From positions 62,001 to 126,000 of the forward strand of contig CAJFSX010000001.1 of assembly GCA_904419775.1 (NCBI GenBank): a stretch of 64,000 nucleotides of DNA, in the 5' to 3' direction. Of the stretch, positions 13,972-64,000 are shown piece after piece. Within the stretch, counting starts at the first letter, position 1. The number at the start of each line of letters is the position of its first letter. The position numbers and the translations under genes are program-made. Below the pieces are notes generated by a model, which did not search any database, had not been told where the DNA came from, and was given only the letters and a program-made list of their open reading frames with translations. This DNA is from Candidatus Pararuminococcus gallinarum. Its GTDB lineage: Bacteria; Bacillota; Clostridia; Oscillospirales; Ruminococcaceae.

Positions 13972-14082
13972 GGCGGACGGAGAATTTTACGTCAGCCGCT
14001 GTTACCACCGGCCAAGAAAGCGGCCCGGACGTTCAAATCTATGTTCACGGGGATTTCCCGTGGAGCCGAAAGGAGTACCGAT

Positions 14083-14775
14083 ATGAACTATTCTCATGAA
14101 GTTGAGAAAATGTGTGTCGTCACAAAGGGCCCCAAACACGGCCCGGCGCCCATTCCTGAAGAGGGAAAATGGGTCAAAGCTTATCAGATTTCTGATATTT
14201 CCGGTCTTTCCCACGGTGTGGGTTGGTGCGCACCCCAGCAGGGCGCATGTAAGCTCACCCTGAATGTCAAAGAGGGCATCATCGAAGAGGCCATGGTAGA
14301 AACCCTGGGCTGCTCCGGCATGACCCATTCCGCAGCAATGGCCGCTGAGATCCTCCCGGGCAAAACCCTGCTGGAAGCTCTCAACACCGACCTGGTCTGC
14401 GACGCTATCAACGTAGCTATGCGGGAAATCTTCAAACAGCTGGCTTACGGCCGCAGCCAGACCGCTTTCTCCGAGGGCGGACTGCCCATCGGTGCCGGTT
14501 TGGAAGACCTGGGCAAAGGTCTGCGCTCCCAGGTGGGTACCATGTTCTCCACCAAGGAAAAAGGCGTCCGTTATCTGGAAATGGCTGAAGGCTATGTTCT
14601 GCAGATCGCTCTGGATGAGAACGGCGAGGTCATCGGCTACAAATTCGTAAAACTGGGCGTCATGCTGGAAAACATCCGCCATGGCATGGATCCGAAAGAA
14701 GCTTATGAGAAGGCGATCGGTACATACGGCCGCTATGAGGGCGCTGCCAAGTACATTGATCCGCGTGAAGAATAA
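14083..14775 (+). CDS. NifU-like iron-sulfur cluster assembly scaffold protein
   Basis: Protein of 230 residues related to the IscU/NifU scaffold fold. The segment GCSGMTHSAAMAAEILPGKTLLEAL (Cys77) resembles the second Cys region of NifU. Further cysteines are at 11, 49, 56 and 106. It does not carry the classical first IscU motif, so it is a distinct branch. AAAGGAG lies seven bases before the ATG at 14083; the longer open frame upstream is leader RNA. The gene is followed 20 bases later by the GGGtGRT gene, with which relatives are, to my knowledge, commonly paired. Whether it really builds Fe-S clusters is not established from sequence. Confidence 0.75.
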   Translation: MNYSHEVEKMCVVTKGPKHGPAPIPEEGKWVKAYQISDISGLSHGVGWCAPQQGACKLTLNVKEGIIEEAMVETLGCSGMTHSAAMAAEILPGKTLLEALNTDLVCDAINVAMREIFKQLAYGRSQTAFSEGGLPIGAGLEDLGKGLRSQVGTMFSTKEKGVRYLEMAEGYVLQIALDENGEVIGYKFVKLGVMLENIRHGMDPKEAYEKAIGTYGRYEGAAKYIDPREE

Positions 14776-52964: not shown

Positions 52965-53321
52965 CTGGCTGGATATAACAGGACGCCGGCAAAACGCAGC
53001 CGGCCCAAAACGGTGGAAGAGGGACTGCAGAAGCTGGCCATGGGGCCGGTCAACGACAGCGTCAAGCTGGTGACCCAGCCCCTTGACCAGCCGATCCCCA
53101 TTGAGGGGCTGGACCTATTCCATATCAAAGAGATCAAAACCAACAAAGAGGGGATGGAGATCAAATTCTACGACCGGCTGGAAGCCCTCAAATGCCTAGA
53201 CGCTCTTCAGCAGCGGCGGGAGGAACTCCAGGAGGGCCGGCAGATTTTGGCGGCCCTGACCCAGGACAGCGGCGGCATCCGGGAGGACGATCCCGGCAGT
53301 CCATCGCCGGGCGGCCTTTGA
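52965..53321 (+). CDS. terminase small subunit-like protein
   Basis: Protein of about 118 residues. The stretch IKEIKTNKEGMEIKFYDRLEALKCLDAL matches the C-terminal end of terminase small subunits of the Terminase_2 type. The N-terminal DNA-binding HTH of that family is absent, so it is short or truncated. The only strong ribosome binding site is AAGGAGG at 52951-52957. It points to a CTG at 52965 (or ATT at 52962), a non-standard start, while the first standard start is GTG at 53013. The coding start is therefore uncertain. Confidence 0.6.
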   Translation: MAGYNRTPAKRSRPKTVEEGLQKLAMGPVNDSVKLVTQPLDQPIPIEGLDLFHIKEIKTNKEGMEIKFYDRLEALKCLDALQQRREELQEGRQILAALTQDSGGIREDDPGSPSPGGL

Positions 53322-53335
53322 CCGGGGTGAGGGCC

Positions 53336-54589
53336 ATGGTGACATCCTTTTCACAAAAGCAGAAGGCTGTGCTGCGGTGGTGGACCAGGGCCAGCCCTTA
53401 CCGGGACTATGACGCCATCATCTGCGACGGCGCCGTCCGGTCGGGAAAGACCCTGTCCATGGGCCTTTCCTTCTTCGTCTGGGCCATGCTGGGCTTTGAC
53501 AAAAGCGCTTTTGCCCTGTGCGGGAAAACATTGGGGTGCATCCGGAGAAACCTTTTAACCCCTCTGCTGCCCACCCTGAAGGCTCTGGGCTTTTCTGTCC
53601 ACCTGGCCCTTTCCAAAAATGAGCTGACCCTCTCCCACGGAGGCAGGCAGAACCGTTTCTACCTCTTTGGGGGAGGCGATGAGGGCGCCGCCGCCCGGAT
53701 CCAGGGCGTCACCCTGTCGGGGGCGCTGTTTGACGAGGTGGCGCTGCTGCCCCGCTCCTTTGTGGAGCAGGCCCTGGCCCGGTGCTCGGTCAGCGGTTCC
53801 AAATTCTGGTTTAACTGCAATCCCGAGCATCCGGGCCACTGGTTCTATACCCAGTGGATCAAAAATCGGCGGGAGAAGCGGGCTTTATACCTGCATTTCA
53901 CCATGGAGGATAACCCATCCCTGACCCCGGAGATCATCCGGCGGTACCAAAAGCTCTATTCCGGCGCCTTTTATGAGCGGTTTGTCCTGGGCCGGTGGAG
54001 CGCTGTCACCGGGGCGGTGTATCCCATGTTCTCCCCCTCGGCCCATGTGGCTTCCCGGCTGCCGGGCCGGTTTGAACGGTACCTGCTCTCCTGCGACTAC
54101 GGCATCGTCAACCCCTGCTCCGCCGGACTGTGGGGCCTCTCCGCCGGGGTCTGGTACCGGATGCGGGAGTACTACTACGACGCCAAGGCCCAAAACGCCC
54201 CCTACCGCACCGACGAGGAACACTACCGGGCCATCGAAGCTCTCTGCGGCGGGCTTCCTGTGGAGGAGATCGTCCTGGACCCGTCAGCCAAAAGCCTGAT
54301 GGAAACCATTAAAAGCCATGGACGCTTCCGCCCCATCCCGGCGGACAACGGGGTGCTGCCCGGCATCCGGGCGGTGACGGCGGCCCTGGAGCAGGGGAAA
54401 ATCCTCATCGGGGAGGGCTGCAGGGACGCCATCCGGGAGTTTTCCCTCTACCGGTGGGACGAAAGCGGAAAGAAGGACCAGGTGGTCAAGGCCTTTGACC
54501 ACGCCATGGACGATATCCGCTATTTTGTCATGTACGCGGTGGAGCGGCCCTCCCAGGGCTTCTTCGCCCTGGCCGCGGAACGGCCTTGA
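53336..54589 (+). CDS. phage terminase large subunit (PBSX type)
   Basis: DNA-packaging motor, 417 residues. Walker A is CDGAVRSGKTLS and Walker B is SGALFDEVALLP, within the ATPase half. The C-terminal RNase H-like nuclease has its first Asp in LLSCDYGIVNPCSAGLWG and a later Asp in IVLDPSA. The ATG at 53336 follows GGTGAGGG; the frame is open 48 codons farther upstream but that part overlaps the preceding gene. It starts 15 bases after that gene. Confidence 0.9.
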   Translation: MVTSFSQKQKAVLRWWTRASPYRDYDAIICDGAVRSGKTLSMGLSFFVWAMLGFDKSAFALCGKTLGCIRRNLLTPLLPTLKALGFSVHLALSKNELTLSHGGRQNRFYLFGGGDEGAAARIQGVTLSGALFDEVALLPRSFVEQALARCSVSGSKFWFNCNPEHPGHWFYTQWIKNRREKRALYLHFTMEDNPSLTPEIIRRYQKLYSGAFYERFVLGRWSAVTGAVYPMFSPSAHVASRLPGRFERYLLSCDYGIVNPCSAGLWGLSAGVWYRMREYYYDAKAQNAPYRTDEEHYRAIEALCGGLPVEEIVLDPSAKSLMETIKSHGRFRPIPADNGVLPGIRAVTAALEQGKILIGEGCRDAIREFSLYRWDESGKKDQVVKAFDHAMDDIRYFVMYAVERPSQGFFALAAERP

Positions 54590-54623
54590 GCATCCATTTT
54601 ACATGAATTTTGGAGGTGGTCAT

Positions 54624-55772
54624 TTGCGTTTCCCTTTGAAACGGCGGTCCGTCCCTCCGGCCGCGGCCCAGGCGGTGCAAACCGCTCCGGCGCCAGGGCT
54701 TTTCTGGGAGGGGCAGGGGCTCATGGGGCTGGAACACCAGTGCCAGCTCTATGACCGGCTGCGCCAGTCGGTCCCCATCATCGACGCGGCCCTGTGCAAA
54801 ATTGTCCGGCTGACCATGGGGGAAATCTCCCTGACCCTGTCGGATAAAAAAACGGAGGAGGAACTTTCCCGCTTTTTGCGGCAGGTGCCGGTGGCAGGCG
54901 GGGGCGAGGGCATTACAGAATTCCTCTCCCGGTACCTGGACAGTCTTCTGTGCTACGGCAACGCAGCGGGGGAGGTGATCTTCGACCACAAACGGGGGGA
55001 GATCACCGGCCTTTATAACGCCGCCCTTTCCGACATCGAGGTGCGCCCTGGGGACAGCCCCATGGAAAGGCGCATCTTCTCCCGGCATGGCGGTTTTGAC
55101 CTGCGCCCGGTGCCCTATCCGCAGCTGGTCCTCTTTACCCCCTTGTCTCCCAAGCCGGGGCAGGTGGTGGGCCGCTCCCTCCTCGCCAGTCTGCCCTTTG
55201 TCTCCTCGGTGCTGCTCAAAATCTATGAGGCCACCCGCCAGAACTTCGAGCGGGTGGGCAATGTCCGCTTTGCCGTAACCTACCGTCCCGGCGAGGGGGC
55301 CATGGACCGGGCCTATGCCCAGGAGATGGCGGAAAACATCGCCGCCCAGTGGCGCAATGCCCTAAGCCAAAGCGACGGGAAGGTCAGGGACTTTGTCTGC
55401 GTGGGGGATGTGGACATCAAGGTCATCGGCGCGGACAACCAGATTCTGGACATCCAGGTGCCCGCCCGGCAGATGGCCGAACAGATCGTGGCAAAGCTGG
55501 GGATTCCCCCCTTTCTGCTGGGGCTGCAGTGGTCCACCACCGAGCGGATGAGTGCCCAGCAGGCGGACATCCTGACCAGCGAGCTGGACTCCTACCGGAT
55601 GCTCTTAAACGGCGTCATCCGCAGGATTGCCGGCATCTGGCTTTTGTCCCGGGGCATCCGGGAGGAGCCGGAGATCACCTGGGAGGAGATCAACCTCCAG
55701 GACCAGGTGGAAGCCGCCCGGGCCAGGCTCTATGACGCCCAGGCGAAAAATCTGACGGGCCAGGCCCGTTAA
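54624..55772 (+). CDS. phage portal protein
   Basis: Forms the dodecameric DNA gate of the capsid, 382 residues. The pattern is typical of the PBSX/HK97-like portal family: AALCKIVRLTMGEISLTLSD, YGNAAGEVIFDHKRGEITGLYN, GRSLLASLPFVSSVLLKIYE and IVAKLGIPPFLLGLQW. The TTG at 54624 is preferred since GGAGG lies seven bases upstream; an in-frame ATG at 54603 has none. Confidence 0.88.
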   Translation: MRFPLKRRSVPPAAAQAVQTAPAPGLFWEGQGLMGLEHQCQLYDRLRQSVPIIDAALCKIVRLTMGEISLTLSDKKTEEELSRFLRQVPVAGGGEGITEFLSRYLDSLLCYGNAAGEVIFDHKRGEITGLYNAALSDIEVRPGDSPMERRIFSRHGGFDLRPVPYPQLVLFTPLSPKPGQVVGRSLLASLPFVSSVLLKIYEATRQNFERVGNVRFAVTYRPGEGAMDRAYAQEMAENIAAQWRNALSQSDGKVRDFVCVGDVDIKVIGADNQILDIQVPARQMAEQIVAKLGIPPFLLGLQWSTTERMSAQQADILTSELDSYRMLLNGVIRRIAGIWLLSRGIREEPEITWEEINLQDQVEAARARLYDAQAKNLTGQAR

Positions 55773-55785
55773 AGGAGGTGAATCC

Positions 55786-56754
55786 ATGGAAAAAAACAAA
55801 AATTCCACCCCATCCCTGAAGGGGAAAGTCAGCGAGGATGTGATGGAGAAGATCAGCGCCTACAGCCTGCGGCCTCTCTCCCCGGAGGAGGTCTATGTCT
55901 TTTCGGTGATCCTCTGCGACAACGACATCGACCGGGACTACGAGCGCTTTGACCGGGCGGGGCTGGAAAAGCTGGCCCAGCTGTTTCTGGGCAAAACCGG
56001 CATCTTTGACCACAACCCCAAAAGCCAGAACCAGACCGCCCGGATCTTTGACTGCCGGGTGATGGAGGATCCCAGCCGGGTCTGTTCAGACGGCACGGCC
56101 TACCACTATCTCAAAGCCAGCGCCTACATCGTCCGCTCCCAGCAGAATGAGCCTCTCATCCTGGACATCGACGCCGGCATCAAGAAGGAGGTCAGCATCG
56201 GGTGCAGTGTGGAGAAAAGCATCTGCTCCATCTGCGGCGCCGACGCCAAAAAATCCCCCTGCGCCCACCGGAAGGGGAAGACCTACGACGGGAAGCTGTG
56301 CTACCACATCCTGGCAGGCCCCACCGACGCCTATGAGTGGTCCTTTGTGGCCGTTCCCGCCCAGCGCAGGGCCGGCGTCACCAAGGGCTACCGCCAGGAG
56401 GCGGGGAACTGCCTGGAGCATCTTCTCAAAAGCCTGTCTTTCGGCCGGGAGGTCACCCTCTCCCCCGAGCAGTCGGGAGCGCTGGGGGACTATCTTGACC
56501 AGCTAAAGACAGGGGCAAAGCTGGGCTGGCAGTACCTAGAGGATCTCAAAAAACGGGTGCGCTCCCTGGCCCTTGTCTGCGAAGAGGCGGGGGAGGCCGC
56601 CGCCTTTTCCTCCCTGGTGGAGAAGATGGATCTAGAGGAACTCAAGGCCTTCGAAAAATCCTTCGAGACGCGCCTTTCCGGCGGCCCGGCTCCCCAGCTT
56701 GCCCCGGAACGAAACCCCAGCCAACCCTCCCCCAACGGGGAATTTAAAATTTAG
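55786..56754 (+). CDS. putative prohead protease/scaffold protein
   Basis: Protein of 322 residues in the position of a capsid maturation protease. The protease-like region contains IDRDYERFDRAGLEKLAQLF, FDHNPKSQNQTARIF (candidate catalytic His) and KEVSIGCS (candidate Ser), and ends with YEWSFVAVPAQRRAG. A Cys/His cluster (CSICGADAKKSPCAHRKG and a later Cys) between them looks like a zinc site. The C-terminal third is helical and may act as scaffold. AAAGGAGG precedes the ATG. Confidence 0.72.
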   Translation: MEKNKNSTPSLKGKVSEDVMEKISAYSLRPLSPEEVYVFSVILCDNDIDRDYERFDRAGLEKLAQLFLGKTGIFDHNPKSQNQTARIFDCRVMEDPSRVCSDGTAYHYLKASAYIVRSQQNEPLILDIDAGIKKEVSIGCSVEKSICSICGADAKKSPCAHRKGKTYDGKLCYHILAGPTDAYEWSFVAVPAQRRAGVTKGYRQEAGNCLEHLLKSLSFGREVTLSPEQSGALGDYLDQLKTGAKLGWQYLEDLKKRVRSLALVCEEAGEAAAFSSLVEKMDLEELKAFEKSFETRLSGGPAPQLAPERNPSQPSPNGEFKI

Positions 56755-56766
56755 GAGGAATGCACC

Positions 56767-57102
56767 ATGACAGTATCTTTTAAGGGAATCGGCCAGACTG
56801 CCGCCACCTTCACCGTAAGCGGGACGCTGGCCTCCGGCGACGTGGTCGCCATGAGCGGCAACGGCCAGGTGAAAAAGGCAGACGCCGGCGACGACATCGC
56901 CGGGGTTTGCCAGAGCGTCCGCCACGGCCTTGCCACCGTCATTGTGGCCGGCCACGCCCAGATGGCAGCGTCCGGTTCTGTCGCCGTTGGAATCGCCTCC
57001 CTAGAGGCCGACACCGGCGGCAAGGTCAAAGCCGCCGCTGAGGGAGGCCGCCAGGTGCTGGTGGTCGCCGTTCAAAACAACATCCTGGACGTCATTCTGT
57101 AG
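56767..57102 (+). CDS. head decoration/stabilisation protein
   Basis: Small beta-rich protein of 111 residues without charged clusters. Its size, beta-strand pattern (TFTVSGTLASGDVVAMSGNGQV, VAVGIASLEADTGGKV) and place between protease and major capsid genes fit a capsid decoration protein. No catalytic motif is present. AGGAGG lies just before the ATG. Confidence 0.7.
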   Translation: MTVSFKGIGQTAATFTVSGTLASGDVVAMSGNGQVKKADAGDDIAGVCQSVRHGLATVIVAGHAQMAASGSVAVGIASLEADTGGKVKAAAEGGRQVLVVAVQNNILDVIL

Positions 57103-57135: not shown

Positions 57136-58152
57136 ATGCAGACCTATGAAAATATCCCTCTGGACCGCTCCATGTATGCCGCCGCCTCCAAAAGCTTTTC
57201 CCGGATTTTGGAGGAGATGGACCCTACCGCCCATTACCAGGGCACCGAGCTTGGCTCCCTAGACGCCTATCAGCGGCAGCTCAAGCGGTTTGACATCAAG
57301 GTGTCCGGGGAAAACTCGGACACGGTGGACAAGTTCTTCGCCGATCCCGCTGGGGCCGCCCTCTTCCCGGAGTACATCGTCCGGGCGGTGCGCCAGGGTA
57401 TGGACGAGGGGAATATCCTCTCCTCCATTGTGGCCACCAAGACGGTCATCGACACCATGGATTACCGGGGCGTCACCTCGGAAAACGAAGGCAACGCCGC
57501 CAAGGAGGTGGGGGAGGGCGCCCAGATCCCCCAGACCGTCTTAAAGCTGAAGGACAACCTCATCCGGCTGGTCAAGCGGGGCCGGATGCTGGTTTCCTCC
57601 TATGAGGCGGTCCGCCATCAGAAGCTGGATCTATTCACCATCGCCCTGCGCCAGATGGGCTCCACCATGGCAAGGGCCCAGCTTGCCGACGCCATCGGTG
57701 TGCTGATGGACGGCGACGGCAACCAAAATCCCGCCAAGACGCTGGAAACCGCGGCGGCGGATACGGTTACCTACACCGACCTGGTGAACCTTTGGAAGGA
57801 ATTTGAGGAATATCAGATGAACACCCTGCTGGTCTCCCCCGACGTCATGGCAAAGCTTTTGGTGCTGGACGAATTTAAGGACACCGGCGCCGGGGATCTC
57901 TTTAATGCCACCGGTATGCTGCGCACCCCCATGGGCGCCATGCTCTATAAGACCAGCTGTGTTCCCGAGGACACCATCATCGCCTTTGACCGCCGCTACG
58001 CCCTGGAAATGGTCTGCGCTTCTCAGGTGCAGATCGACTACGACAAGGTCATGGACCGCCAGCTGGACCGGGCTGCTATCACCGCCATTGTAGGCTTTGG
58101 CAAGCTCTTCCCCGACGCGGTCAGGGTCATGACCGTCAAAAAGGGTTCCTAG
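57136..58152 (+). CDS. major capsid protein (HK97 fold, PBSX XkdG-like)
   Basis: Protein of 338 residues. The N-terminal part is the expected arm (YQRQLKRFDIKVSGENSDTVDKFF). The core includes LFPEYIVRAVRQGMDEGNILSSIVATKTVIDTMDYRG, TALEVAxxx-like helices and the C-terminal strand MVCASQVQIDYDKVMDRQLD. AAAGGAG precedes the ATG. The 100-base gap that follows holds a strong GGCGGGA/TCCCGCC hairpin (58188-58207) with no T run. Confidence 0.85.
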   Translation: MQTYENIPLDRSMYAAASKSFSRILEEMDPTAHYQGTELGSLDAYQRQLKRFDIKVSGENSDTVDKFFADPAGAALFPEYIVRAVRQGMDEGNILSSIVATKTVIDTMDYRGVTSENEGNAAKEVGEGAQIPQTVLKLKDNLIRLVKRGRMLVSSYEAVRHQKLDLFTIALRQMGSTMARAQLADAIGVLMDGDGNQNPAKTLETAAADTVTYTDLVNLWKEFEEYQMNTLLVSPDVMAKLLVLDEFKDTGAGDLFNATGMLRTPMGAMLYKTSCVPEDTIIAFDRRYALEMVCASQVQIDYDKVMDRQLDRAAITAIVGFGKLFPDAVRVMTVKKGS

Positions 58153-58252: not shown

Positions 58253-58615
58253 TTGGAAATCGGTAAAATCGTAGAAAACTTCGCCCTCTTCGCAGGGCTC
58301 TCTGTCAGCGACGCCATGCAGTGGCTCCCCCTCTGCCGCTGGGCCAAGGAATCGGTGGAACAGTCCCTGCGCCCCGGCGTCGATCTCCAGAAAAATAAGG
58401 AACGGCTTTCCCTGGTGGCGGCTGCCCTGGCCCTGCGGGCCTACGACGGGGGGCTTTCCGGCTCCAGCGATCTGCGCAGCATGTCGGTGGGGGATGTGAA
58501 GGTGGAAAACGCCGCCTCGGGTTCCGCCGCTTCCCAGAAAATCTGGGAAGAGATGTGGGGCCTCTGCCGGGATCTGCTCCAGCACCCCCAGGGCGGGGTC
58601 TGGATGAGCTGTTAG
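58253..58615 (+). CDS. head-tail connector-like protein
   Basis: Protein of 120 residues, mostly helical, starting with EIGKIVENFALFAGLSVSDAMQWLPLCRWA. Its location directly after the capsid gene suits a connector/adaptor protein. The TTG start at 58253 is set by a perfect AAAGGAG seven bases upstream. No firm family is recognised. Confidence 0.65.
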   Translation: MEIGKIVENFALFAGLSVSDAMQWLPLCRWAKESVEQSLRPGVDLQKNKERLSLVAAALALRAYDGGLSGSSDLRSMSVGDVKVENAASGSAASQKIWEEMWGLCRDLLQHPQGGVWMSC

Positions 58616-58624
58616 GAGGGCCCT

Positions 58625-58945
58625 ATGAAGATACAAAGACAATTTCGGTGGTTTCTCTCCCACTACGGCACCCAGATGGAGGTGGAAGGGCACACCTTCA
58701 AAGGGGTGCTCCTCCCCGCTTTTAAGACTACCATGGGCCACCGGGAACGGGGGGACTTTATCCCCGCCGGGCAGAGCCCTTTGGAGGAGTATCTCTATAT
58801 GGGGGACCCCCAGCGGGAGCTGCCGGTGGACAGCCTGCTTTCCTGCGGGGGCCGTCAGTTTGTGGTGCGATCCAGCATGACGGTCCTCTTTGAGGACGCG
58901 CCCCTCTATACCCGGGCCATCCTCTCCCCAGCGGAGGTGAGTTAG
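58625..58945 (+). CDS. head closure (XkdH-like) protein
   Basis: Protein of 106 residues with a beta-rich pattern (MEVEGHTFKGVLLPAFKTT, GRQFVVRSSMTVLFEDAPLY) typical of phage head-closure or stopper proteins. GGAGGG lies before the ATG, nine bases after the preceding gene. The assignment rests on position and size. Confidence 0.6.
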   Translation: MKIQRQFRWFLSHYGTQMEVEGHTFKGVLLPAFKTTMGHRERGDFIPAGQSPLEEYLYMGDPQRELPVDSLLSCGGRQFVVRSSMTVLFEDAPLYTRAILSPAEVS

Positions 58946-59443
58946 ATGGCTGTCATCGCCGCTTTCGACCGCCTCTACCGGCTCAAAGAAGAGGTCCGGG
59001 ATCTCATTGCCCAGGCGGGGATTCCCCAGACGGACATCCTCTGTGAGTTTCCCCCCAAGGGGCGGGCCTATCCCCTGAAGCGCCCCTGCATCTGCGTGGG
59101 GCTTTCCTCCATCCAGATGGGAGCCGGCGCTCTGGGCGGCTTTGTAGGCGCCCAGAAGGAGGGGGCGGAGCTTTTCGGAAAACGCCTGGAAGTGGAGTTT
59201 CGCTTTGACATCTACCTACCCAAAGGGTGGGAAGAGGGCTGCCACTCCTATTTCTGCACCCTCTGCGACATTCTCACCGGCCAGCTGCCGGACATGGAAA
59301 AGATGTGGTGCGGGGAGATGTCCTCCACCGCCCAGAACGACGGCTTCACCCTGCCCTGCTATGCCCGGCTTTCCGCCCTGGCCTGTCAGGGGGAGGAGGA
59401 AGCCGCCCTGACCCAAATCATCCTGAGGAGGAAGGAACTATGA
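58946..59443 (+). CDS. tail terminator/neck protein
   Basis: Protein of 165 residues starting directly after the stop codon of the previous gene. It opens with a helical segment (FDRLYRLKEEVRDLIAQAGI) and continues with strands such as VEFRFDIYLPKGWEEGC. Size and position just before the sheath gene suit a tail terminator or XkdJ-type completion protein. Its stop codon overlaps the sheath ATG by ATGA. Confidence 0.6.
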   Translation: MAVIAAFDRLYRLKEEVRDLIAQAGIPQTDILCEFPPKGRAYPLKRPCICVGLSSIQMGAGALGGFVGAQKEGAELFGKRLEVEFRFDIYLPKGWEEGCHSYFCTLCDILTGQLPDMEKMWCGEMSSTAQNDGFTLPCYARLSALACQGEEEAALTQIILRRKEL

Positions 59444-60507
59444 GTGTTTCCCCAGCATCCCAGACCGCAAATGAGCGGCCGGGGGTGACATCCAGCTATG
59501 TGGTGTGGTCCCTCTACCAGGGCAATGAAAACGCCCTGCCGGTGGGCCTCATCGGGCCGGCCGCCCAGAACAATGACGGGACGGCCTATGAAATCTCCTC
59601 CATGGGAGGGATGGAGGATACCTTCGGAAAGGGGAGCGGCGGCCTCCTTGCCGGGGCGGGTATCCTCTTTGAAAACGGCGTCACCAGCCTGACGGTGGCC
59701 GCCGTCCCGGCAGAGGGGGCGGAGGATGACGACTACAAGGCCGCCATCGCCGCCCTCTGTCAAAAATCCGCGCCCCGGATCATCGTCTGCGACAGCACCT
59801 CCCAAACGGTGCTCACGGCCCTGCGGGATCAAATCGCCGCGGACAGCGCCGCCCAGAGGGAGCGGGTGGCCATCTGCCCGGCCCCCCAGCCGGACACAGC
59901 CCTGACCCTGGCCGCCGCCCTCAACAGCGAACGGATGATGGTCTGCGCCGGGGCAGGGGTGGCGGGGGAACAATCCAGCCCCTTCTTCACCGCCTGCGCC
60001 ATGGCGGGATTATACGCCACCGCCGCCGACCCCTCGGCCAACCTTTCAGGCAGCGCCATGACCGGCATCACCGGCCTAGCGGAGGAACTCTCCGAAGCCG
60101 ACATCCAGCGGCTGCTCTCCGGCGGCGTCACCCCCTTTGAAACGGTGGGCGGGGCGGTGGAGTGTATAAAGCCCGTCTCCACCCGCACCACCACCGATGG
60201 GGTCCCCGACCGGACCTGGCACTCCATGGGCGTCATCATGACCATCGACTATGTCATGATCCGCCTGCGGCAGATGCTGAAAATCCGGATGAAGGGGGCC
60301 AAGAACAATCTGGCCACCCGGGAGTCCATCCGCAGCCAGGTGGCTTTGGAGCTTGCCACCCTCTGTCAAAACGGCATTCTGGATGACTACGGGCCGCCTC
60401 AGGTCTTCAAATCGGAAAGCGATCCCAGCGTCTGCCAGGTGGAGCTTTCCTTCAAGGTTTCCGGCGCCATGGACCGGATCCATGTGGCGGCCTACATTAC
60501 CATTTAG
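59440..60507 (+). CDS. contractile tail sheath protein (XkdK-like)
   Basis: Protein of 355 residues. Typical sheath features are the N-terminal RPGVTSSYVVWSLYQ region and AMTGITGLAEELSEADIQRLLSGGVTPFE. The C-terminal domain has TRTTTDGVPDRTWHSMGVIMTIDYVMIRLRQML and ends in VSGAMDRIHVAAYITI. The presence of a sheath shows that the particle has a contractile tail. The ATG overlaps the preceding stop codon, and GAGGAGGAAGG lies upstream. Confidence 0.9.
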   Translation: MSVSPASQTANERPGVTSSYVVWSLYQGNENALPVGLIGPAAQNNDGTAYEISSMGGMEDTFGKGSGGLLAGAGILFENGVTSLTVAAVPAEGAEDDDYKAAIAALCQKSAPRIIVCDSTSQTVLTALRDQIAADSAAQRERVAICPAPQPDTALTLAAALNSERMMVCAGAGVAGEQSSPFFTACAMAGLYATAADPSANLSGSAMTGITGLAEELSEADIQRLLSGGVTPFETVGGAVECIKPVSTRTTTDGVPDRTWHSMGVIMTIDYVMIRLRQMLKIRMKGAKNNLATRESIRSQVALELATLCQNGILDDYGPPQVFKSESDPSVCQVELSFKVSGAMDRIHVAAYITI

Positions 60508-60517
60508 GAGGGAAGTT

Positions 60518-60898
60518 ATGATTGTCTCTTTTCCCACCAGCCGGGATATCTCCATCGAGATCAACGGCAAGCGTTTGGCCGTGGCCCAGTCTTACAAGGT
60601 CAAGGCCTCCAAGGAGAGCCGCTATATCGAAAGCTTTGGCCAGGAGGAACCGGTGGGCACCGTAGGGGGCCGCAGCCGCTATCTCATCGAGCTCAGCCGG
60701 GTCTATGTCACCGACACGGCCCTTTCCGACGGCATCGATTTTTACAGCCTTTCTGATTTTAATGTGGTCATCGCCAAGCCGGACAAGCGGATCATCTTCT
60801 CCGGCTGCGAGTGGTCCGACATTGTGGAGGGCTCCTCGGTAGGGGATGTGGTGCTGGAGTCGGTGGCCATCCTGGCCTCCAAAAGGATGGAAGTGTAA
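60518..60898 (+). CDS. tail tube protein (XkdM-like)
   Basis: Protein of 126 residues, beta-rich, with SIEINGKRLAVAQSYKVKAS and RSRYLIELSRVYVTD. Size and place right after the sheath fit the tube protein of contractile tails. GGAGGGAAG precedes the ATG at 60518. Its stop codon overlaps the next ATG. Confidence 0.8.
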   Translation: MIVSFPTSRDISIEINGKRLAVAQSYKVKASKESRYIESFGQEEPVGTVGGRSRYLIELSRVYVTDTALSDGIDFYSLSDFNVVIAKPDKRIIFSGCEWSDIVEGSSVGDVVLESVAILASKRMEV

Positions 60899-61206
60899 TG
60901 GAAGAAATCACACTCAGGGGGAATCCCTATGAGATCAGGCCCATCAGCGCCTATGACGCGGTGCGGGGGGCGGCTCTCGCCCAGAAAACCGCCAAAGCCC
61001 TGAAAAAAATCTGGCCGGGAGACCTAACCCGCCTTTGCGACGGGGGATGCATCGCCGCCCTCTGTCTCTACCGGCAGGGGCGCCGGGCCTTTCACAGCCC
61101 CCTTTCTGCCCTGCGAAGCCTCAGTGTTGAGGAAATCTGCCAGGTGGAGAGGGCCTATCTCTCCCTGATGGAGGAGGGAAAGGAGGGGGAGCATGTCCTA
61201 CTTTGA
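60898..61206 (+). CDS. tail assembly chaperone-like protein (XkdN position)
   Basis: Protein of 102 residues, largely helical, beginning with EEITLRGNPYEIRPISAYDAVRG. The location between tube and hub genes matches the tail assembly chaperone, which normally coats the tape-measure protein. No programmed frameshift to a longer product is apparent. The ATG overlaps the tube stop codon (TAATG). Confidence 0.6.
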   Translation: MEEITLRGNPYEIRPISAYDAVRGAALAQKTAKALKKIWPGDLTRLCDGGCIAALCLYRQGRRAFHSPLSALRSLSVEEICQVERAYLSLMEEGKEGEHVLL

Positions 61207-61504
61207 GCGGCTTATCTCCATGGCGGCCCCCTCCCCCAAAAGCCCGGAAAGGCTGCTGGATCCGGCGGCGGAGAAGTCTCCTCATCCTCCCCGGGAAAGG
61301 GGGCTGCCAAACCGGGCTCCGGCGGATTTTTCCCTCAAAAAGGCGGAGGGGAGGATGGAGGTTTCCATCCAGGAGCCGCCGCCCCTCACCATCTCCGCTT
61401 CGCCGGTATCCCGCATGATCCCTGACCGGCGGGGCCTGGCGGAGGAAATCTCCGACGAAATCATGCTGGACGCCCGGCGTTACGGCGTCCCGCTGGAGGA
61501 ATAA
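61193..61504 (+). CDS. short proline-rich protein in the tape-measure slot
   Basis: Protein of 103 residues, overlapping the chaperone gene by 14 bases. It is rich in Pro, Arg and Glu, apparently disordered in the middle (SPKSPERLLDPAAEKSPHPP), and ends with a short helix (LAEEISDEIMLDARRYGVP). It has no hydrophobic helices. In related elements this position is taken by a tape-measure gene of many hundreds of codons, so this is a replacement, a remnant or an unrelated protein. Confidence 0.6.
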   Translation: MSYFERLISMAAPSPKSPERLLDPAAEKSPHPPRERGLPNRAPADFSLKKAEGRMEVSIQEPPPLTISASPVSRMIPDRRGLAEEISDEIMLDARRYGVPLEE

Positions 61505-61527
61505 CATGGCGGCAAGGAGGAATCCCA

Positions 61528-61923
61528 TTGGAACTGATGCAATTTAAAAGCTATACCTGGCCTTATAACCCGGTGAAAATCGAAATCACCCTGGGCCGGG
61601 ACCTGCGCACCCGTCAGGCCCGGGGCTTTGGCGCCATCATCAGCGACTGGGGCCAGACTGGGGCCAAAATCCAGGGGGAGGGGGAGTTTTTCGGGGAAAA
61701 TTGCAGGGCCCAGTTTGAAAGCCTGCGCAAGGTCTTTCTCACCGAGGGCTCGGGGAAACTGATCGTCCCCTCCTTTACCCCGGTCTATGCCTACTTTGAA
61801 AGCCTGAAGGTGCTGGGGGAAGGCCCCCTTCACACCCTGCGCTACGCCTTCTCCTTTGTAGAGGATATGGAGCGGAAGATCTCCGGCGGCAACAGCCTTT
61901 CCATGGGCGGGGTGCTCTCATGA
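61528..61923 (+). CDS. tail/baseplate hub-associated protein
   Basis: Protein of 131 residues. The pattern FKSYTWPYNPVKIEITLGRD...GFGAIISDWGQTGAKIQGEGEFFG...LRKVFLTEGSGKLIVPSFTPVYAYFESL resembles gpU/DNA-circularisation N-terminal type tail proteins. No LysM domain is present, in contrast to XkdP, which has this place in PBSX. The TTG start at 61528 has AAGGAGG seven bases upstream. Its stop codon overlaps the next ATG. Confidence 0.65.
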   Translation: MELMQFKSYTWPYNPVKIEITLGRDLRTRQARGFGAIISDWGQTGAKIQGEGEFFGENCRAQFESLRKVFLTEGSGKLIVPSFTPVYAYFESLKVLGEGPLHTLRYAFSFVEDMERKISGGNSLSMGGVLS

Positions 61924-62921
61924 GGGCCGCCCTGTACACGGCGGAGGGCAGGCTCATCCGCCCCCGGCAGATCTTCGCCTTCTCTCTGGACGAGGGCCTT
62001 TTTGTCCCTGCCGCCGCCTTGGACCTTACCGTCTCCGACCTGATCTACGAGCCGGTGACGGATATCCTTATCTACGATGGGGACTCCCTCCTCTTTGACG
62101 GCTTTGCCGACCGGCAGCAGGCCATAGAAAACAGCCAGGGCGCCTTTACCCGGCTGCGGGCCAGAAGCCGGGGGGCCCTGCTTTTGGACAACGAGGCCCG
62201 GCCCCAGACCTATCAGCGCACCACGGCGGAGGACATCTTCCGGCGGCATCTCGCGCCCCACGGTTTTACAGAGATCCGGGGCCACCGCCAGGCACTTTCC
62301 AGCTTTGTGGTGGGCAAGGGGATGAGCGAGTGGGAGGTGCTGACCTCCTTTCTGGACAAGACCACCGGCGCCTATCCCCGGATCCTCCCCGGGGGGATCA
62401 TCGACATCGAAACCTATCTAAAATCTGAAAAACGGGTCCATCTCTCCAACACCCGGCCGGGAGCTGTCCGCTACACCGGCTATGAGGTGCGCTATGACCG
62501 GATGGCCCCCATCTCCCAGGTGCTCATCGCCGATGAAAACGGACTTTACTCCACCTGCGTCCGAAACCCGGTGGCGGAGAAATCCGGCATCTCCCGGCGG
62601 CGGTATCTCACCACCCCCAAGGAGTATGCCGACGCCCCGGTGCGAAACGCCAAGCTGCGGATCCGCAGTTCCATGGAGGAGTATTTCTCGGTCTTGGTGG
62701 ACGCCGCCACCCCTTCCGCCATCGGGCTTTTGGATCTATGTATCTTTGAGCCCATGAAGGACTACGACGGGGAGCTCATCGCCACCCGGCGGACCATCTC
62801 CCTGACCTCCGGGGGCTGGCAGACCAAGGCGGTGCTCCAGGACAAACGGCATCTGGAAATGGACCTCACAGAAGAAAAGGAGGAAAGCTATGTGGCTGTC
62901 ACGACGCCCAGCATCCCCTAA
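61920..62921 (+). CDS. baseplate hub protein (XkdQ/phage late control D-like)
   Basis: Protein of 333 residues. The layout fits the hub: N-terminal beta domain (LDLTVSDLIYEPVTDILIYDGDSLLFDGFADR), a middle domain (TTAEDIFRRHLAPHGF, VGKGMSEWEVLTSFLDKTTGAYPRI) and a C-terminal beta domain. It forms the platform for the spike encoded next. The start ATG overlaps the preceding stop codon. Confidence 0.78.
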   Translation: MRAALYTAEGRLIRPRQIFAFSLDEGLFVPAAALDLTVSDLIYEPVTDILIYDGDSLLFDGFADRQQAIENSQGAFTRLRARSRGALLLDNEARPQTYQRTTAEDIFRRHLAPHGFTEIRGHRQALSSFVVGKGMSEWEVLTSFLDKTTGAYPRILPGGIIDIETYLKSEKRVHLSNTRPGAVRYTGYEVRYDRMAPISQVLIADENGLYSTCVRNPVAEKSGISRRRYLTTPKEYADAPVRNAKLRIRSSMEEYFSVLVDAATPSAIGLLDLCIFEPMKDYDGELIATRRTISLTSGGWQTKAVLQDKRHLEMDLTEEKEESYVAVTTPSIP

Positions 62922-63255
62922 AGGGGCATCCGCCGGCCGGGTCACCCTCCCGGGAGGGGCCGGCTTTGGGGGAGGAGGCGGGGCAGAGCTGCGGGAAGCC
63001 CCTGTCTACGGCCCCTATGGCTACCGCTTTGAGGCGCCGGAGGGCAGCGGGGTGCTCCTTTTGGACACAGCGGAGGGCCAGGTCCTCTGCGGCGTCCGCA
63101 CGCCCCCGGCCGGGGGGCTTCTGCCGGGGGAGGTGGAAATCTCGGTGCCGTCAGGGGCCAGAATCAAGCTTTGCCAGGACGGCACCATCTGGCTCAACGG
63201 CGCCCATATCACCAAAGGCGGCCAATTTGTCCCCGGCTCCGGCAGCGGGGACTGA
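62890..63255 (+). CDS. baseplate spike/gpV-like protein
   Basis: Protein of 121 residues that overlaps the hub gene by 32 bases. The N-terminal 30 residues are Gly-rich. The rest is an OB-fold-like strand set ending with GARIKLCQDGTIWLNGAHITKGG, the repeated strand pattern of spike beta-helices. AAGGAGGAAAG precedes the ATG. Short for a gpV. Confidence 0.68.
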   Translation: MWLSRRPASPKGASAGRVTLPGGAGFGGGGGAELREAPVYGPYGYRFEAPEGSGVLLLDTAEGQVLCGVRTPPAGGLLPGEVEISVPSGARIKLCQDGTIWLNGAHITKGGQFVPGSGSGD

Positions 63256-63281: not shown

Positions 63282-63635
63282 ATGGAAATGCGCATCCAAA
63301 ACGGAGACTTTGTCCCCGACCATCGGGGCATCCCCCAGGCGGTGGACGGGGTGGAGGAAACCATCAACCGGGTCTTTTTCTGCCTGTGCGCCCGGCGGGG
63401 CGGCTTTGCCCCTCTCCCCGGCCTGGGCAGCCGGCTGCGGGAAATTTCCGGCAGCGGGGAAAATCGGGACCTCACCGCCGCCGTCATGGTCCGGGAGGCT
63501 TTAGAAAGCCTGGACGACGTCCAGGTGGGGGAGGTCACCACCGCCCAGCAGGGGGAGAGCCTCACCATTTCCATCAGGCTGCAGCTTGCGGTGGGAGAAT
63601 ATGAAATCGAGGTAGGTGTGCCCTATGGCCAATGA
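63282..63635 (+). CDS. gp25/XkdS-like baseplate wedge protein
   Basis: Protein of 117 residues with the pattern of gp25-like wedge proteins: LPGLGSRLREISGSGENRDLTAAVMVREALESL followed by beta strands (ESLTISIRLQLAVGEYEIEVGV). AAAGGAGG precedes the ATG. It overlaps the baseplate J gene by 11 bases. Confidence 0.78.
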   Translation: MEMRIQNGDFVPDHRGIPQAVDGVEETINRVFFCLCARRGGFAPLPGLGSRLREISGSGENRDLTAAVMVREALESLDDVQVGEVTTAQQGESLTISIRLQLAVGEYEIEVGVPYGQ

Positions 63636-64000
63636 GTTTGCCCCACGCTCCTATGAGGAGCTCTTAAATGAAATGACCGATGGCTTCCAGGCCATCAGCG
63701 GCTACAGCCCCAAAGAGGCGGGGGACTTATACGTCCGCCTGTGCCTGTTGGCCCAGGAGCTTTCCGCCCTCCATGAGAAGCTGGACTTCGCTGGGCGGAT
63801 GCTCTTCCCCGACACGGCCCAGGGGGAATATCTGGACCGCCACGCCCAAACCCGGGGCCTTGTCCGGAAGGAGGCGGTCCCCGCCACGGGGGTCCTCCGG
63901 TTTTCCCGGGATACCGCCGCCGCCTATGACATCTCCATCCCCCAGGGCACCCTCTGCTGCACCAGGGGGGAGGAGCCGGTCCGCTTTGCCACCACGGCCG
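63625..64000 (+). CDS. baseplate J-like protein, cut by the window end
   Basis: The frame from the ATG at 63625 (AGGTAGGTG upstream) is open to the end of the window, 125 codons. The readable part contains EYLDRHAQTRGLVRKEAVPATGVLRFSR and ISIPQGTLCCTRG. These are typical of the N-terminal region of baseplate J/XkdT proteins, which link wedges to the hub. The remaining two-thirds would lie beyond 64000. Confidence 0.82.
   Translation, partial: MANEFAPRSYEELLNEMTDGFQAISGYSPKEAGDLYVRLCLLAQELSALHEKLDFAGRMLFPDTAQGEYLDRHAQTRGLVRKEAVPATGVLRFSRDTAAAYDISIPQGTLCCTRGEEPVRFATTA

What the first reader, a model, noticed from the sequence alone, without database searches (positions are those of the whole stretch)
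60898..61923. Contractile-tail gene set with no tape-measure gene in its usual slot
Sheath, tube and chaperone-like genes are followed by a 103-residue Pro-rich protein and then hub genes, as if the PBSX xkdO tape-measure gene had been removed. Tail length in known phages scales with tape-measure length. Either the tape measure lies beyond 64000, or the tail is extremely short or set by another mechanism, or the element is defective. The neighbouring frames all look intact, which speaks against simple decay.
Basis: partly seen in the sequence, partly recalled or inferred. Interest (0 to 1): 0.75.

Follow-up and report, generated by a model that had tools for sequence, protein, structure and literature searches.

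The report
Conserved stub-tailed particle lacking tape measure
A phage-derived gene set kept by many gut bacteria still encodes a head, a contractile tail sheath and a baseplate but lacks the ruler protein that normally sets tail length; a short conserved protein sits in the ruler's place, so it offers a natural test of how small such an injection tail can become.

Summary
The window's head-plus-contractile-tail operon has no tape-measure protein (TMP) in its slot. The genome's one TMP belongs to a separate siphophage-like prophage. In 107 non-redundant related clusters (Oscillospirales-type Clostridia, including Anaerotruncus colihominis) none has a TMP-sized gene. Sheath, tube, hub and baseplate genes in related pairs are under purifying selection, against decay.

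The slot is not empty. It holds a conserved short protein: a C-terminal helix with an RRY motif plus a variable, mostly unstructured N-part. It is 54-273 residues with a sheath and about 29-58 (one 121) without. The family forms a graded series: sheath+tube, tube only, hub/baseplate only, head-proximal only.

Best reading: a domesticated, gene-transfer-agent-like DNA-packaging particle with a stub contractile tail. The slot protein may be a TMP reduced to its spike/hub anchor (less certain). Closest published system: Faecalibacterium FpGTA (tailless-looking 40 nm particles); its homology to this family was not testable here.

The parts
52981..53321 (+). small terminase (TerS) lacking the N-terminal helix-turn-helix seen in most relatives
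   Evidence: phrog_2606 E 2e-4 over the C-terminal motif only; profile match starts at position 52 of 145; start codon uncertain
53336..54589 (+). large terminase
   Evidence: phrog_2 E 5e-48
54585..55772 (+). portal
   Evidence: phrog_30703 E 1e-118; start approximate
55786..56754 (+). conserved head protease/scaffold-type protein used as family marker (alignment A2)
   Evidence: phrog_16951 E 3e-99; 40-50% identity to relatives. The name protease is my reading; the PHROG has no function
56767..57102 (+). head decoration-like protein
   Evidence: phrog_4588 E 3e-15
57136..58152 (+). major capsid protein
   Evidence: phrog_3922 E 1e-89
58253..59443 (+). three head-tail connector / tail terminator-like genes (HT1 58253-58615, HT2 58625-58945, HT3 58946-59443)
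   Evidence: position and profile relatives; individual roles inferred
59440..60507 (+). tail sheath, 355 aa
   Evidence: phrog_279 E 5e-22; the only sheath in the genome
60518..60898 (+). tail tube, 126 aa
   Evidence: AF2 pLDDT 84.7; tail-tube structures as best PDB matches
60898..61206 (+). XkdN-like putative tail assembly chaperone
   Evidence: position; sequence family found with sheath-bearing clusters; no Pfam/PHROG match
61193..61504 (+). slot protein, 103 aa: in place of the tape measure; helix 3-9, unstructured Pro-rich linker, C-terminal helix 79-97 with ARRY motif
   Evidence: C-terminal motif profile, reversed-sequence control, AF2
61528..61923 (+). XkdP/DNA_circ_N-like hub-associated protein
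   Evidence: phrog_184 E 6e-4, PF07157 E 6e-4
61920..62921 (+). baseplate hub (XkdQ/gpD-like)
   Evidence: phrog_177 E 1e-4
62890..63255 (+). gpV-like spike candidate
   Evidence: phrog_25991 (unknown function) E 3e-11; role inferred from position
63282..63635 (+). XkdS-like sheath initiator
   Evidence: PF10934 E 9e-5, below its cut-off
63616..64000 (+). baseplate J, continuing past the window; gene I, the fibre gene and host genes follow in the genome
   Evidence: PF04865 E 8e-47; continuation

Best explanation
This is a conserved, domesticated, gene-transfer-agent-like element of Oscillospirales-type Clostridia. It builds a DNA-packaging head with a very short (stub) contractile tail and has no full tape measure anywhere in the sampled family. 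Mechanism proposed: the hub/spike and baseplate assemble; the slot protein docks on them through its conserved C-terminal helix; only as many tube and sheath rings are added as the short slot protein (or the docking of the tail terminator and head) allows; the terminase then fills the head, and in the window TerS lacks the domain that would give sequence specificity. SHOWN: TMP absent, operon ends at host genes (contig join inferred), slot protein conserved, purifying selection in related pairs, graded tail series, TerS domain absent. INFERRED: that particles form, that the tail is a stub, that random host DNA is packaged, that the slot protein is a reduced TMP anchored on the spike. The confidence is for a TMP-free conserved GTA-like particle with a stub contractile tail; I give the slot-protein-as-mini-TMP part alone about 0.35.
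For: TMP absent in cis: the longest unlabelled same-strand ORF inside any of the typed clusters is 292 aa, and that is itself a slot protein (107 non-redundant clusters: A 35 sheath+tube, B 29 tube only, C 13 hub+baseplate only, D 20 hub without J and I, E 10 no hub; before this count 62 of 185 loci were dropped as too short or undecided, 2 as sheath without hub, and 7 of 121 typed loci for lack of a long enough portal). No TMP downstream in the own genome. TMP absent in trans: 6 of 17 element-bearing genomes (G029, G060, G072, G085, G090, G144, all type A) match neither PF10145 nor phrog_58; the own genome's single TMP belongs to a siphophage-like prophage with its own terminase, capsid, tail terminator, major tail protein and Dit. 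Positive control: phages sharing the protease have 666-1225 aa TMPs recognised by PHROGs. Conservation: marker A2 in 68 of 148 genomes of the family, 110 of 200 of a sister family, 45 of 295 of the order, 7 of 398 of the phylum, mostly one copy. dN/dS (10 pairs): sheath 0.14-0.26, tube 0.02-0.15, slot 0.14-0.53 where dS was not saturated. Recurrent host neighbours: trmL/degV genes upstream in 9 clusters each, HflX-like downstream in 6 (names from sequence by eye). The window's left flank is argCJBDF, argH, argG and an LCP gene (argG/argH named by eye); no integrase there, no att-like repeat over 12 bp between flanks. TerS: 21 of 81 assessable clusters lack the N-terminal HTH, at least 8 changes on the tree, as in RcGTA (PMC6854486, passages). 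Slot: motif profile seeded from type A only gives 61 hits in position against 7 elsewhere at E<0.5 among 58,572 segments; 0 in reversed sequences for the iterated profile. Slot length A median 123 (n=25), B 44 (n=19), C 36 (n=9). TMP C-terminal helices sit on the spike in diffocin (PMC11329794 section 11).
Against: No particle of this element has been seen. No homology was shown between slot proteins and any TMP: no PDB match to the motif, no Pfam match and no significant PHROG match, nothing significant at the C-termini of the TMP-bearing phages examined. The slot linker is unstructured, unlike the coiled-coil TMP of diffocin, so ruler behaviour is doubtful. Motif missing by profile in 10 of 35 type A clusters. 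Length differs with sheath presence, but sheath gain/loss needs only about 5 changes on the tree, so the Mann-Whitney p of 1e-9 overstates independence; L083 has a sheath with only a 54-aa slot, and one type C slot is 121 aa. 60 of 81 assessable clusters keep the TerS HTH. 11 of 17 element-bearing genomes do have some TMP-profile match. The C1-C49 link in the own genome is an inference from single-copy genes at contig ends. The window itself has no close relative for dN/dS (genus search found only itself).
Confidence: 0.66

Rival explanations
1. Tail length is not measured at all: the slot protein is a hub/tube adaptor or lumen plug unrelated to TMP, and the stub tail ends because the tail terminator/head docks at once.
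For: The motif persists in clusters with no tube (C 11 of 13) and no sheath (B 24 of 29), so it cannot only be a ruler; the linker is unstructured; no similarity to TMPs.
Against: It lies exactly in the TMP slot, keeps a C-terminal helix like the spike-anchored TMP end, and is longer where there is a sheath.
Confidence: 0.4
2. The TMP is encoded elsewhere in the genome, as FpGTA splits its genes over two operons.
For: FpGTA has a second operon about 125 kb away (PMC12946183 section 9); G067 and G086 split this family's genes over two places; 11 of 17 element-bearing genomes hold some TMP-profile match.
Against: 6 of 17 genomes, all type A and 91-100% complete, match neither TMP profile; in the own genome the only TMP is inside a siphophage-like module.
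Confidence: 0.05
3. A decaying prophage remnant.
For: No integrase, replication or lysis genes seen beside it; some relatives carry stops in the marker gene.
Against: All window frames open; low dN/dS over the whole operon in relatives; present in 68 of 148 and 110 of 200 genomes; recurrent host neighbours.
Confidence: 0.04
4. A killing particle (PBSX-like or tailocin-like) that packages host DNA but delivers none.
For: PBSX-like gene order (recalled); the FpGTA authors leave the same option open (PMC12946183 section 10).
Against: The family repeatedly drops sheath and tube while keeping head and packaging genes, the opposite of tailocins, which as recalled keep the tail and drop the head.
Confidence: 0.15
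5. A capsid-forming phage satellite that borrows tails from a helper.
For: Type E clusters have no tail gene within about 7 kb (10 of 107). The satellite class is recalled, not looked up.
Against: The window type has its own sheath, baseplate and fibre; no integrase seen; recurrent host neighbours.
Confidence: 0.04

Closest known systems
FpGTA of Faecalibacterium (Borodovich et al. 2026, PMC12946183)
   Same: Host order; short operon of TerS without DNA-binding domain, TerL, portal, scaffold, capsid; no replication genes; host-chromosomal; particles with no visible or very short tails (sections 9, 10 and 26 read).
   Different: FpGTA is described as podovirus-like and split over two operons; the paper's text has no occurrence of 'tape measure' or 'tail sheath' (listing). 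The window type has sheath and tube and one operon. Sequence homology not tested.
PBSX / Firmicutes contractile phage tails such as Faecalibacterium phage FP_Mushu
   Same: Gene order sheath, tube, chaperone, [slot], hub proteins, spike, wedge, J, I.
   Different: FP_Mushu has a 2388-bp TMP gene in the slot; here a 103-aa protein. PBSX order is recalled.
RcGTA of Rhodobacter capsulatus
   Same: TerS without N-terminal HTH (PMC6854486 passages); the window tube model matches the RcGTA tube chain (6tba, rank 5).
   Different: RcGTA has a non-contractile tail (recalled); no sheath or J/I baseplate.
Diffocin / R-type tailocins
   Same: Contractile sheath and tube; diffocin collar chains are among the best fold matches.
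   Different: Diffocin has a full-length TMP (about 1388 A, C-terminal helix 795-817 on the spike) and, as recalled, no head.

Membership tests
Gene transfer agent (GTA) | head, portal and terminase genes conserved in the host lineage, no integrase or replication module beside them | tested here: met
   mostly one copy per genome
Gene transfer agent (GTA) | TerS without sequence-specific N-terminal DNA-binding domain | tested here: met
   window TerS matches from profile position 52 of 145; but 60 of 81 assessable relatives keep the domain
Gene transfer agent (GTA) | packages random host DNA, less than the element's own length | not testable with these tools
   needs particles; the operon is about 12.7 kb against 8.4-8.9 kb packaged by FpGTA
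Gene transfer agent (GTA) | transfers DNA to recipients | not testable with these tools
   no experiment
FpGTA-type element of Faecalibacterium | sequence homology of operon I proteins | not testable with these tools
Contractile-tailed phage (myophage-type) | sheath, tube, hub, J/I baseplate | tested here: met
Contractile-tailed phage (myophage-type) | tape measure protein between chaperone and hub genes | tested here: not met
   therefore not filed as an ordinary myophage
Tape measure protein | long, largely helical protein, hundreds of residues, with recognisable TMP profile | tested here: not met
   slot protein 103 aa, mostly unstructured, no profile match
Tape measure protein | C-terminal helix docked on the spike/hub | tested here: inconclusive
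   C-terminal helix predicted, docking not tested

The most novel reading that the evidence does not exclude
The slot proteins are minimal tape measures: TMPs stripped to the spike-anchoring C-terminal helix, with a linker that lengthens only in lineages that keep tube and sheath. The family would then record the stepwise dismantling of a contractile tail under domestication, from a TMP-less stub with sheath, to tube only, to hub on head, to head alone, while DNA packaging is kept.
Probability: 0.33. Interest if true: 0.88.

Novelty: new variant of a known kind. Interest (0 to 1): 0.72.

Why it matters
Tail length control by a tape measure is treated as the rule for phage tails with a tube and sheath. 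A widespread, selected lineage that keeps sheath and tube but no TMP, with the slot taken by a 30-270 aa protein, makes the question of what is the least needed to build and stop a tail directly testable in cultured gut bacteria (Anaerotruncus colihominis, A. massiliensis, Caproicibacter fermentans and Clostridium sporosphaeroides carry members of the family). It also suggests that GTA-like elements may reach well beyond Faecalibacterium, across several families of an abundant gut order.

Tried and rejected
TMP beyond the window: rejected. Unlinked TMP in the own genome: the hit at G000:C5 is a separate siphophage-like module. Slot ORF as the frameshift partner of the chaperone: not favoured, since the slot motif persists in B and C clusters where no chaperone ORF is found, and the frame offset between the two ORFs, worked out by hand coordinates, differs between loci. 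Slot motif at the C-terminus of TMP-bearing phages: nothing significant, best E 0.068 on an antisense segment. PDB search with the motif: two chance-like hits. tblastn of a slot C-terminus against phages: only chance hits (E about 7) and two unverified gut contigs, E 0.3, that also match this family's sheath. tRNA-linked integration: a tRNA-Arg lies beside the own element, but only 10 of 50 loci scanned have any tRNA; three related type B loci (L092, L112, L126) share a tRNA-Thr some kb upstream, otherwise no common pattern; no att repeat over 12 bp. Faecalibacterium identification: a named phage record was fetched for it but the idea was not carried through. The xkdN profile also labels an ORF in 3 of 10 type E clusters, probably a connector, so chaperone counts are approximate. 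Papers: PMC12946183 outline, sections 9, 10, 26 and passages; PMC11329794 section 11 and passages; PMC6854486 and PMC9022992 passages; PMC8035907 searched for one word, not found; others only as search listings. That a TMP-less contractile cluster of this kind is not in print rests on those seven searches of one open-access library.

Full report
What is there. The window is bases 62001-126000 of contig C1 (127168 bases) of a 2.16-Mb genome in 121 contigs. From about 52981 it holds one operon: TerS, TerL, portal, protease/scaffold-type protein, decoration, capsid, three connector-type genes, sheath, tube, chaperone-like ORF, 103-aa slot ORF, XkdP-like, hub, gpV-like, sheath initiator, J, I. All frames are open.

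Does the tape measure lie further on? The contig ends inside gene I. A profile of the fibre gene that follows I in relatives finds one place in the genome, at C49:14023-14487 minus strand, 55 bases from the end of that 14542-base contig; the ORF itself is 14014-14490. After the fibre come a tRNA-Arg, an ORF without a Pfam match, a FAD oxidoreductase of the NadB type, NadC and, further on, a ribonucleotide reductase (NadB is my naming from the Pfam match and its position next to NadC). Gene I is found only at the C1 end. So the operon runs about 12.7 kb, from a host flank of arginine biosynthesis genes and an LCP gene to host genes on the other side. The contig join itself is inferred.

Is a tape measure elsewhere? 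PF10145 has no match in the own genome and matches in 6 of 17 element-bearing genomes at E<=0.001. phrog_58 matches in 10 of 17, including the own genome, where the 1119-aa ORF sits between a major tail protein and Dit of a siphophage-like prophage with its own terminase and capsid. Six of the 17 genomes, all type A, match neither. Profile searches can miss divergent TMPs, so this is strong but not absolute.

How widespread? A hub search found 45 of 148 family genomes. The most conserved gene (A2) was found in 68 of 148 of the family, 110 of 200 of a sister family, 45 of 295 of the order and 7 of 398 of the phylum. Some of these hits cover only the first 200 residues and may be ordinary phages that share the protease, as seen in viral contigs L197, L200, L201, L203, L226, L228, L229 and L233, so the counts are upper bounds for the element.

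Architecture. ORFs of L002 and L034-L238 were labelled with iterated profiles and typed: of 185 loci with a capsid gene, 121 could be typed, 62 were too short or undecided and 2 had a sheath without a hub; 114 of the 121 had a usable portal, giving 107 non-redundant clusters: A 35, B 29, C 13, D 20, E 10. No cluster holds an unlabelled same-strand ORF over 292 aa; in type A the four longest are slot proteins, while in one type D cluster (L131) a 253-aa ORF remains unassigned. The tree of four head genes (FastTree, midpoint drawing only) puts type A on several branches with B, C and E mostly inside one large clade; all labels need 14 changes against a shuffled mean of 60.2. This fits loss of the tail in steps, but rooting is not established. 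Type D and E may keep tail genes at a second place, as G067 and G086 do.

The slot protein. A profile of C-termini from sheath-bearing clusters only finds, among 58,572 stop-to-stop segments, 61 hits in the slot and 7 elsewhere at E<0.5; several of the 7 are slot ORFs whose anchor gene was mislabelled. After iteration it finds 76 in position and 8 outside, of which most are slot ORFs in loci with a missing or misplaced anchor; the iterated profile finds 0 in reversed sequences at E<0.5. In the non-redundant set the motif is called in A 25 of 35, B 24 of 29, C 11 of 13, D 2 of 20, E 0 of 10. Lengths (7 rows without a usable start dropped): A 54-273, median 123, n=25; B 38-58, median 44, n=19; C 29-46 plus one of 121, median 36, n=9. 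The core of the consensus is LSEALERDSRRYDRPLSEEEE; an arginine of the RRY motif is the only invariant residue in two alignments. AlphaFold2 on the window's slot gives helix 3-9, an unstructured middle and helix 79-97 (mean pLDDT 66.8 overall; block 81-90 at 87).

Selection. In 10 related pairs dN/dS is below 1 for every gene with a finite estimate, for example sheath 0.14-0.26, tube 0.02-0.15, TerL 0.04-0.10, slot 0.14-0.53. One pair (L160/L183) is saturated for many genes. The window's own species has no partner.

Mechanism. In diffocin the tape measure is a coiled-coil trimer about 1388 A long with C-terminal helices 795-817 on the spike (PMC11329794, section 11). The conserved part of the slot protein is a C-terminal helix of about 20 residues, encoded just before the hub genes, which is what would remain if a tape measure were cut down to its anchor. 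At diffocin's 1.7 A per residue (1388 over 817) a 103-aa protein would span about 17 nm, a few rings; this is arithmetic on an analogy, and the linker is not helical. The alternative, that the protein is an adaptor and nothing measures the tail, fits the same data about as well, since the motif persists where no tube is left.

Comparison. The closest published system is FpGTA in Faecalibacterium: two operons, TerS without DNA-binding domain, 40-nm particles without identifiable tails, 8.4-8.9 kb random host DNA, and packaging also seen in Ruminococcus callidus at 4.6 kb (PMC12946183, sections 9, 10, 26). The present family has the same kind of head operon in the same order of bacteria, and its B-E types would give the tailless or stub-tailed look reported there, but I could not fetch a named Faecalibacterium genome to test homology. 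What is added here: a contractile version that keeps sheath and tube without a tape measure, the slot protein family, and the graded series.

Limits. No particle data; start codons are mechanical; type counts depend on profile sensitivity; chaperone labels are weak; the sampled loci are the best-scoring ones of capped searches, so the proportions of types are not population estimates. That the hosts are Oscillospirales is read from the NCBI record titles, not from a classification of the window's own genome, which is unnamed.

Noticed in passing
G000:C5 (L242 3579-17863): A separate siphophage-like prophage module (TerL, minor head, scaffold, capsid, tail terminator, major tail protein, 1119-aa TMP, Dit) in the same genome.
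   Followed up: yes
L083 (sheath 349 aa, slot 54 aa): A sheath-bearing cluster nested among sheath-less ones on the tree and with a short slot protein and no chaperone label; either sheath was lost more than once elsewhere or regained here.
   Followed up: no
L197, L200, L201, L203, L226, L228, L229, L233: Viral contigs that share the element's protease (51-60% identity over about 190-235 residues) but otherwise unlike genes; the 4 tested have TMPs of 666-1225 aa. The protease links the element to ordinary phages.
   Followed up: partly
G067 and G086 (0.7 and 0.9 Mb genomes): Very small but 97% complete genomes keep the element, with head and tail genes at two separate places.
   Followed up: partly
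TerS upstream of TerL across loci; window 52981-53321: The N-terminal HTH of TerS is absent in 21 of 81 assessable clusters with at least 8 changes on the tree, suggesting repeated loss of packaging specificity.
   Followed up: partly
L034, L041, L045, L066, L075, L080, L081, L086, L132 upstream; L076, L077, L102, L109, L113, L134 downstream: The element sits beside the same host genes (trmL/degV-type upstream, HflX-type downstream) in different genera, suggesting old shared insertion sites.
   Followed up: partly
L248 4037-7765 (G000:C49): A 1243-aa ORF with a DUF6273 domain a few kb beyond the element's host border.
   Followed up: no
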